Assembly (NCBI RefSeq): GCF_024582695.1
Contig: NZ_CP102081.1
Location: 1 to 64,000 of the forward strand
From: Mycoplasma sp. 1578d
Lineage (GTDB): Bacteria; Bacillota_I; Bacilli_A; Mycoplasmatales; Metamycoplasmataceae
Direction: 5' to 3'
Length of the DNA: 64,000 bases
In this document: one piece after another, positions 61,512 through 64,000 of the stretch
How positions within the stretch are numbered: position 1 is the first letter of the stretch
Layout: each line of letters opens with the position of its first letter
Translations under genes and position numbers: made by a program
Notes under the pieces: model-generated
What the model saw: only the letters and a program-made list of their open reading frames with translations
What the model was told of the DNA's origin: nothing
Database searches by the model: none

Positions 61512-61537
61512 GTTTCTTTAAAAAAACAAATAAAAAA

Positions 61538-61640
61538 ACAGCAACCCCCTATTTTTGCATCTCTGCTATCTTCGGCACTAACGGGCTTAACTACTGAGTT
61601 CGGAATGGGTTCAGGTGATCCCCGTTGCTATAATCACTGT
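61538..61640 (-). rRNA. rrf: 5S ribosomal RNA
   Basis: On the minus strand the sequence contains GAACCCATTCCGAACTCAGT and GTTAAGCC, the conserved loop B-C region of 5S rRNA. Helix I forms between ACAGUGAU at the 5' end and GUUGCUGU at the 3' end. The length is about 103 nt, usual for mollicutes. TATAAT at 61647-61652 on the minus strand is seven bases before the predicted 5' end. No 16S or 23S gene is nearby, so it is an isolated 5S gene. Confidence 0.92.
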
Positions 61641-61646
61641 TTTATA

Positions 61647-61745: not shown

Positions 61746-62387
61746 ATGGAACGAGAATTTAAAAATTTAAAAGTAGGACAAATAATTAATGTCCAAGGTT
61801 ATAAATTTAATGGATTTTTATATCGTCAATGAAATTCAGCTAAAGTTATTTTTAATAATTCTAGACACATTGTGCTATTCTTGCACAGAACCAAAGTTAG
61901 CGATTATAACAAAAAGATTAATTATTGAAGATACAGCGAAAACGCGTTATGGTTTTTTCCTAAAAATTCATATTTTAATGCAATTTTATTGCTTAAAAGA
62001 AATTCTAAGATTTATCATTATATAAATTTGGCTTCTAAACCTGTTTTTGAAGATGAGACTATTAAATTTATTGATTTTGATCTAGATATTAAATGTTATC
62101 CAGGCAAAGATATTCAGCTTGTTGATAGAGACGAATTCTTAAAAAATAGTGTTCTGATGAAATATCCTGTTCAATTTAAAAAAACTGTTTTTGACGAAAT
62201 AACCCGTGTTTTTGAATTATATGCCAATTATAAATATTTCTTTAACCCACAAATTCTCGGATATTATGTTGACATTCTTTACAAAGACAAATTAATCGAA
62301 AAAAAGTTTTATGATAATTTCATCAAAACAAACGTTCAAGAATATAGTGATGAGTTCAGTATGTTTTCAGATTTAATGAAAAAATAA
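61746..62387 (+). CDS. DUF402 protein
   Basis: This 213-aa protein has the DUF402 fold signature. WRYSENALWFFPKNSYFNAI and YYINLASKPVFEDETIKFIDFDLDI (in part: YINLASKP, FIDFDLDIKCYP) match, as does QLVDRDEFLKN. Related B. subtilis proteins hydrolyse nucleoside di- or triphosphates; the Asp-rich stretch FIDFDLD fits the metal site. Two UGA(Trp) codons near the N-terminus hide the start; ATG 61746 restores the family's first strands. Confidence 0.85.
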
Positions 62388-62402: not shown

Positions 62403-62436
62403 AAAAGAACAGGAAAATTAACATCCTGTCCTTTTC
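62403..62436 (+). terminator. Terminator after the DUF402 gene
   Basis: AACAGGA (62408-62414) pairs with TCCTGT (62424-62429) within flanking AAAAG/CTTTT, followed by TTTCTTT. Confidence 0.75.
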
Positions 62437-62570
62437 TTTATAATCTTTAATAATTTGTTGCAATAATAATAAAAAATAATAAACAAAGCCTGAATTAAGT
62501 GAATTTACATACCTTAACATAAACATGTGTGCAAGCTGTTTTTCTCAATTTATTGCATTTTTCAGTTTGC

Positions 62571-62591
62571 TTTTTTTTTTTTTTTTTTTTT
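62571..62591 (+). repeat. Homopolymer of 21 T before a lipoprotein gene
   Basis: Twenty-one consecutive T residues follow TTTGC and end eight bases before TATAAC (62600-62605), a probable -10 box. It lies in a 292-base gap upstream of the lipoprotein gene at 62680. Homopolymers at this place control phase-variable lipoproteins in other mycoplasmas (vlp, vsp systems). Confidence 0.9.
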
Positions 62592-62599
62592 GTAAATTG

Positions 62600-62605
62600 T
62601 ATAAC
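62600..62605 (+). promoter_or_regulatory. Probable -10 box of the terminal lipoprotein gene
   Basis: TATAAC is the best -10 candidate. Any -35 element would fall inside the T tract, or in TTGCTT (62568-62573) ahead of it, which is now 26 bases away. Confidence 0.45.
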
Positions 62606-62679: not shown

Positions 62680-64000
62680 ATGAAAAGAAAAGCAAAAAGA
62701 TTAATATCTACATTTTCAATTACTGCACCATTGTTAACATTAATCACTACATCTTGTTCAATTAGTATTTTTCCAAGTAAAAGCTACTTAGAAAGTATGA
62801 GATACAAAACACCTTATTTTATCGATTTAATTAGAATGGAACAACAAGATCAAGGAATAAAAACTAATAATAGTATTATCTTTGATCAATTTGTTGAAAG
62901 CTTATATGAAAAAGCTTTATCTTGAGACCGAAAAGACCAAGAGAAAAGAACAGAAAACTATAGAAAATACATCAGATACGATTTTTTAAAAGATAACAAA
63001 CAATTAATAAAGTCAGTTGAAGATTTTTCAAGTCATATTATTAATAAAATTAATTCATTATATGAAGATCTTAAACTTCCTAAAACTCTTTCTGATGAAC
63101 AAATTAAAAAAATCTTTGAATCTGATTTTTTAAACGGACAAAGTATTGAAAATATCTTAAAAAACAGTAATATTTTAATTTTGCAATCAAATGATGATCG
63201 CTCCCCTATTGGTTTGAGCTATTCTCTTAAAGAACAAAAACAAAATCATATAAATATTTTACGAATCAACCCATGGATAATTAAGCAAACTGGTGGTTAT
63301 CTCCAATCAACTGATCTTAGATCTGAAAAACCTGTTTTTAGTGTTATTTTACTTTCAAAAAATCAAGACTTCAAAATTAAATATACAACTAAATCAGAAA
63401 ACAATCAATTATTAAGTGATTTATATTATAAATATGGTTACAAAGCAGACCAATTTTATGATTGATATTTTGGGCCAGATATCTCGCAAGCAATAAATAA
63501 AATACAAAACGAACAAGGAATTTTGTATAAGGAAAATTTACTTTTAAATAATTTAACTGATGAATCTTTAAGTGATTTACCCTTAAATTCTAAGGTATAT
63601 ACTATAAAAACCACTAATGATTTTAATGAATTCATTACTAGTACAATTCAACAAGTTGCTCAAAAACTTAAAACCTCTTTAACTAAAGAACAAGTAATTG
63701 ATAATTTTGAAAAAAATTATTTAAATGGTCAAAAATTAGAAAACGTACTAAAAGGTTCTGATATTCTCGTGCAACGAGCAATTGAAAAACCAAGCATGTT
63801 GTCATTAAACGACCCCGATCAATTGGTTAAATTAGCTAGTTCTAATTCATCAAAAATACAATTAGCTTTTATTAATGAAAGAGAATTTAATTTTAATTTA
63901 ACAGGCAAATCTCAATCACCTGATAAAAAATCAATGGTTTTTTATCAGGTTCTAACAGTTCCAAAAGGGGCTCAAGTAGAGATTAAAGATAAATTAAACT
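62680..64000 (+). CDS. Lipoprotein with an internal duplication (3' end beyond window)
   Basis: The first 440 residues of a prolipoprotein are present; the frame is open to the end of the window. The lipobox is ITTSC with Cys26. AGGAG lies before the ATG. Two segments resemble each other, about residues 114-232 and 313-440. Each has a helical part (FLNGQSIENILKNSNIL against YLNGQKLENVLKGSDIL) followed by a strand-rich part. I know no function. The poly-T tract upstream suggests variable expression. Confidence 0.85.

What the first reader, a model, noticed from the sequence alone, without database searches (positions are those of the whole stretch)
62571..62605. Poly-T tract as a candidate phase-variation switch for a surface lipoprotein
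A 21-T run sits between TTGCTT and TATAAC, just ahead of a lipoprotein gene. At present the spacing between those two boxes is 26 bases, about nine more than an active sigma-70 promoter needs. Loss or gain of T by slippage would change it. Mycoplasma vlp/vsp genes use a poly-A tract in the same way. No other homopolymer of this length was seen in the window.
Basis: partly seen in the sequence, partly recalled or inferred. Interest (0 to 1): 0.72.

Follow-up and report, generated by a model that had tools for sequence, protein, structure and literature searches.

The report
Poly-T promoter tract before surface lipoprotein
A run of 21 T's sits just upstream of the start signal of a mycoplasma surface-lipoprotein gene, and the same layout precedes many surface-protein genes in related species, including the operon for the antibody-cutting MIB-MIP system, so it is most likely a slippage-prone expression switch of an already known type.

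Summary
T21 lies at 62571-62591, 8 nt before TATAAC and 88 nt before the ATG of a 461-aa lipoprotein. The 893.5-kb genome has only three A/T runs of 12 or more: this one, T18 before a MIP-MIB (antibody protease) operon, and T16 in a terminator before a glucose-PTS gene. The spacing is 27 nt, not 26.

In the same GTDB genus (61 species), 124 tracts of T>=16 were examined. 59 of the 85 with a gene start just downstream precede signal-peptide proteins. -10-like hexamers peak 6-11 nt after the tract (z about 4). Related copies with near-identical flanks usually differ in T length. In six species, MIP-MIB operons keep T18-19, then 8-10 nt, then TATAAT, although upstream flanks are mostly unrelated.

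Best reading: a slippage-variable promoter of the maa2/vlp kind; maa2 of M. arthritidis (poly-T upstream of -10) is a closer precedent than vlp. Length variation within this species and any effect on expression are untested, and the vpma T-tract of M. agalactiae was reported not to switch.

New member of a known kind; the conserved tract at MIB-MIP is the most interesting extension.

The parts
62571..62591 (+). T21 homopolymer, the candidate variable tract
   Evidence: Read directly; one of three A/T runs >=12 in the genome
62600..62605 (+). Putative -10 hexamer TATAAC, 8 nt after the tract
   Evidence: Same 8-nt gap as at the MIP promoter of this genome and four related species; -10-like hexamers peak 6-11 nt after tracts genus-wide
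62551..62570 (+).
   Evidence: Pairs with GCAAGCTG at 62531-62538, 24-nt loop, shuffle p 0.007; not a general partner of such tracts
62531..62538 (+). 5' arm of the weak dyad (GCAAGCTG)
62680..64000 (+). Lipoprotein gene (461 aa, ends at genome position 64065, beyond the window), orphan copy of a family usually paired with S8 subtilases
   Evidence: ORF with lipobox TTSC at residue 26; homologs in the genome and in G050, G065; no Pfam/NCBIfam match
62409..62439 (+). Inverted repeat ACAGGA/TCCTGT plus T-rich tail, likely terminator of the preceding DUF402/NtdP-like gene (61746-62387)
   Evidence: Read directly; the scan did not call it because its T-run is interrupted; gene identified

Best explanation
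The T21 tract is part of the promoter of the orphan lipoprotein gene at 62680. It occupies roughly -21 to -41 relative to the start site, directly upstream of the -10 (TATAAC). DNA-polymerase slippage changes its length by one or a few T's, which changes the spacing and helical phase between the -10 and upstream RNA-polymerase contacts, so subpopulations express the lipoprotein at different levels (ON/OFF or graded). Shown here: tract, -10 spacing, lipoprotein target, rarity in the genome, recurrence of the layout at surface genes in the genus, and length differences between homologous copies. Inferred: that the length changes within this species, that TATAAC is the -10 used, and that length controls transcription.
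For: Two of the genome's three long T-tracts lie exactly 8 nt before a -10 and before a lipoprotein gene. Genus-wide, 59 of 85 tract-linked genes carry a signal peptide against 4 of 44 window genes. -10-like hexamers are enriched only 6-11 nt after the tract: 17 vs 6.9, z 4.1. 47 of 61 pairs of homologous tracts with similar flanks differ in T number. Six species keep T18-19 plus 8-10 nt plus TATAAT before MIP-MIB while upstream flanks are mostly unrelated. Same position as maa2, and spacer indels switch vlp, maa2 and vmm (PMC2268961).
Against: No within-species length variation or expression data. The vpma T-tract immediately upstream of its -10 did not switch in M. agalactiae (PMC2268961). 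MIP tracts are T18 in five of six assemblies, which looks more like a preferred length than free switching. Most T>=16 tracts in the unbiased set have no strong -10 at 6-11 nt (82 of 99). The paralogs of this lipoprotein have no tract.
Confidence: 0.6

Rival explanations
1. Fixed promoter element: the T-tract works as a stiff or bent upstream element in a constitutive promoter. Its length drifts but does not matter for expression, as reported for vpma.
For: vpma T-tract shows no ON/OFF role (PMC2268961); MIP tracts cluster tightly at T18-19 across species.
Against: Lengths differ between homologous copies with near-identical flanks. A stiff element would not need a pure homopolymer, the sequence most prone to slippage. 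maa2 and vlp switch with such tracts (PMC2268961).
Confidence: 0.22
2. Intrinsic-terminator U-tract: the dyad GCAAGCTG/CAGTTTGC plus T21 stops transcription coming from upstream, and the promoter lies just after it.
For: Dyad directly before the tract, shuffle p 0.007; the T16 tract before the PTS gene is of this kind, also in G050; 15 of 99 genus tracts follow a same-strand stop within 80 nt.
Against: The preceding gene ends 184 nt earlier and has its own inverted repeat at 62409-62429. The loop is 24 nt. Hairpins are not a general partner (16 of 99 at p<=0.05). A U-tract of 6-8 suffices, so 21 T's are not explained.
Confidence: 0.1
3. Neutral slippage product or assembly error: the run grew by chance in AT-rich intergenic DNA, or its length is miscounted.
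For: Homopolymers are error-prone in assemblies; the genome is 72% AT.
Against: No A/T run of 12-15 exists in the whole genome. All three long runs lie upstream of genes and two are exactly 8 nt before a -10. Recurrence at MIB-MIP operon heads is far above random placement (5 of 24 vs 0.055; random placement includes coding DNA).
Confidence: 0.08

Closest known systems
Mycoplasma arthritidis maa2 poly(T) switch (Washburn et al. 1998, cited in PMC2268961)
   Same: Poly-T directly upstream of a -10, in front of a surface lipoprotein gene; expression state correlates with T number (poly-T detail from my own knowledge of the paper; that spacer indels switch maa2 is in PMC2268961)
   Different: Different species and lipoprotein family; switching measured there, not here
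M. hyorhinis vlp poly-A promoter switch (Citti and Wise 1995, cited in PMC2268961)
   Same: Homopolymer in the -35/-10 spacer of lipoprotein promoters
   Different: Poly-A on the coding strand (own knowledge), tandem gene family with one tract each; here a single orphan gene and poly-T
M. agalactiae vpma promoter T-tract (PMC2268961)
   Same: T homopolymer immediately upstream of the -10 of a lipoprotein promoter
   Different: Found not to switch; variation there comes from Xer1 recombination
M. hominis vmp poly-T (PMC524362)
   Same: T16 located 77 bp upstream of the ATG of a surface-protein gene
   Different: Function not tested; there the tract also marks the 5' border of an insertion islet
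Helicobacter pylori sabA T-tract rheostat (PMC4081817)
   Same: T-tract length changes promoter output through helical phasing, with maxima about 10 bp apart
   Different: That tract is adjacent to the -35 and acts with UP-like elements; here it lies directly upstream of the -10, over the -35 region

Membership tests
maa2/vlp-type homopolymer promoter switch | Long homopolymer directly upstream of a -10 | tested here: met
   T21, 8 nt, TATAAC; -10 peak at 6-11 nt genus-wide
maa2/vlp-type homopolymer promoter switch | Drives a surface lipoprotein gene on the same strand | tested here: met
   ORF 62680 with signal peptide and lipobox
maa2/vlp-type homopolymer promoter switch | Tract length varies between clones of one strain | not testable with these tools
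   No second strain or reads; only homologous copies in relatives differ
maa2/vlp-type homopolymer promoter switch | Expression depends on tract length | not testable with these tools
   Needs RNA or protein data
vlp/vmp-like multigene family with one tract per copy | Each paralog has its own homopolymer promoter | tested here: not met
   Paralogs at 538203, 77809, 81622 and 73977 have no tract
Intrinsic terminator | Compact G+C-rich hairpin followed by a T-run, downstream of a same-strand gene | tested here: inconclusive
   8-pair dyad with 24-nt loop; terminator scan finds none; preceding gene ends 184 nt upstream
H. pylori sabA-type rheostat | Output oscillates with tract length at helical periodicity | not testable with these tools
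   Needs a reporter series

The most novel reading that the evidence does not exclude
The same poly-T/-10 element is a conserved phase-variation control of the MIB-MIP antibody-capture and cleavage operon. In six species of the genus T18-19, then 8-10 nt, then TATAAT is kept while upstream flanks are mostly unrelated, so these mycoplasmas would switch antibody cleavage on and off as a contingency locus together with variable lipoproteins.
Probability: 0.4. Interest if true: 0.7.

Novelty: new member of a known kind. Interest (0 to 1): 0.48.

Why it matters
If true, long T-tracts are a quick genomic marker of contingency promoters in this genus and its order, and the list of likely phase-variable genes includes the MIB-MIP antibody-cleavage system. 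In the passages I read from a 2021 review of anti-immunoglobulin strategies (PMC8593674) and a 2026 MIB-MIP study (PMC12994834), control of MIB-MIP by phase variation is not mentioned. Population heterogeneity in antibody cleavage would bear on how these chronic colonisers of animals persist.

Tried and rejected
Genome-contig scans for named relatives of the lipoprotein and of MIP found nothing, so no species is named and no second strain was obtained. AlphaFold of the lipoprotein alone gave pLDDT 33 and was discarded. A hairpin as a general partner of the tract was tested and rejected (16 of 99 non-redundant tracts at p<=0.05, about 5 expected). Exact TATAAT alone is only weakly enriched in the unbiased set (11 vs 4.9); the weighted -10 score gives the clear peak. 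Washburn 1998 and Czurda 2017 are not held. The phage collection gave no match.

Full report
Observation. The window (28% GC, TGA read as Trp) is bases 1-64000 of an 893,515-bp single-contig mycoplasma genome. At 62571-62591 there is a run of 21 T, then GTAAATTG, then TATAAC (62600-62605), and 74 nt later the ATG (62680) of a gene with a clear lipoprotein signal (MKRKAKRLISTFSITAPLLTLITTSC). The gene runs past the window end to 64065, 461 aa. No other run in the window exceeds 8. In the whole genome only five A/T runs reach 9, and three reach 12 or more: T21 here, T16 at 282633-282648 (minus) and T18 at 690907-690924 (minus).

The two other tracts. The T18 tract lies on the coding strand before a lipoprotein identified as MIP, the Ig-specific serine endopeptidase (NF045842, E 3e-179; Pfam DUF31). 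It is followed by the immunoglobulin-blocking protein MIB (TIGR04526, E 8e-145). Its -10, TATAAT, begins exactly 8 nt after the tract, as at site 1. The T16 tract is different: it is the tail of a terminator-like hairpin (TGGAAATTATTCCA) a few nt after the stop codon of the preceding gene, and well upstream of the -10 of a glucose-PTS EIICBA gene. The G050 ortholog has the same arrangement with T18.

MIP-MIB operons in relatives. Six species of the genus carry a T18-19 tract before MIP, followed by 8 nt (five species) or 10 nt (one) and TATAAT: G000 T18, G050 T19, G051 T18, G064 T18, G072 T18, G016 T18. In each, MIP is followed by MIB. The 40 nt upstream of the tracts are 23-60% identical between species (14 of 15 pairs at or below 47%), and MIP of these species is 42-67% identical to the G000 protein. 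The tract and its distance to the -10 are thus the best-conserved part of the promoter. G044 has T16 before its MIB-first operon and G013 has T18 before a MIB-like start. In 14 genomes with complete tract lists, 5 of 24 operon heads have a same-strand tract within 600 nt upstream of the profile match; random positions give 0.055 (random positions include coding DNA, so this overstates the contrast). Not all operons carry it: MIP-first operons in G008, G004 and one copy each in G072 and G024 have no T-tract, and DUF31 pairs without a MIB downstream have none either.

Genus-wide picture. 53 of 61 genomes hold T>=16 tracts. I fetched 124 of them, taken from the genomes in listing order, and oriented them by the T strand. 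85 have a same-strand gene start 10-130 nt downstream; 59 of these encode a signal-peptide protein by a simple hydrophobicity rule. The same rule of 44 genes in the window. On the A side 22 of 53 pass, many of them short spurious frames. Both orientations occur but the T side dominates. In the non-redundant set (99), -10-like hexamers are enriched only at 6-11 nt after the tract (17 vs 6.9, z 4.1). The base before the run is G or C in 84% (83 of 99) against 43% for T6-8 runs. Among homologous tracts with similar flanks, 47 of 61 pairs differ in T number, for example T19/T17/T18 in three tandem copies of G047 and T16 to T20 in the family of G043. The pattern T12, N6-12, TATAAT occurs in 23 of 61 genomes of the genus and is several-fold commoner than its reversed control. 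The layout also occurs in other genera of the order (26 of 99 genomes, 11 genera).

The gene behind site 1. It belongs to a lipoprotein family with four other loci in the genome (73977, broken; 77809; 81622; 538203) and members in G050 and G065. It has no Pfam or NCBIfam match. Most members are the second gene of a subtilase (S8)-lipoprotein pair with overlapping stop and start. The window gene is an orphan copy with its own promoter. The other paralogs have no tract, and neither do the G050 and G065 members examined.

Mechanism. With a -10 at 62600 the tract covers about -21 to -41, the -35 region. A length change would shift upstream contacts in distance and helical phase. PMC2268961 states that indels between -35 and -10 turn vlp, maa2 and vmm ON or OFF, and that vpma has a T-tract immediately upstream of its -10 which did not cause switching. 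PMC4081817 shows a graded, about 10-bp periodic effect of T-tract length in H. pylori. PMC524362 records T16 upstream of vmp genes of M. hominis. The observed lengths (mostly 16-20 within the T>=16 set) make a required loss of nine T's unlikely; changes of one to three T's near the present length are the likelier switch. Whether the present T21 is ON or OFF cannot be told.

Limits. No strain comparison, reads or RNA data were available. The species could not be named. Tract lengths are as assembled. The literature search covers only open-licence papers, so absence of a report on MIB-MIP tracts is weak evidence of novelty.

Noticed in passing
G000 684-698 kb (L033), T18 at 690907-690924 minus: MIP-MIB operon of the same genome has T18, 8 nt, TATAAT; the layout recurs in six species of the genus and may make antibody cleavage phase-variable. 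A 13-bp dyad lies directly upstream of this tract in G000 only.
   Followed up: yes
G000 276-290 kb (L032), T16 at 282633-282648 minus; G050 L205: Terminator hairpin with an unusually long T-run (T16; T18 in G050) between a small gene and a glucose-PTS EIICBA gene, kept in two species.
   Followed up: partly
G000 71.7-83 kb (L029), G050 465-476.8 kb (L131), G065 (L097, L103): Tandem S8 subtilase plus lipoprotein gene pairs with overlapping stop and start codons, one G000 pair broken by frameshifts; the lipoprotein family has no Pfam or NCBIfam name and is found well above threshold only in three species of the genus.
   Followed up: partly
G043 540-559 kb (L137), G047 101-109 kb (L138), G051 129-136.5 kb (L136): Tandem surface-protein gene families in which each copy has its own T16-20 tract, resembling vlp families.
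   Followed up: partly
G052 (L218, L219, L222, L227): Extremely long T-runs of 35-51 in one genome, some upstream of lipoprotein genes.
   Followed up: no
window 61536-61641 minus: 5S rRNA gene with no other rRNA match in the window.
   Followed up: no
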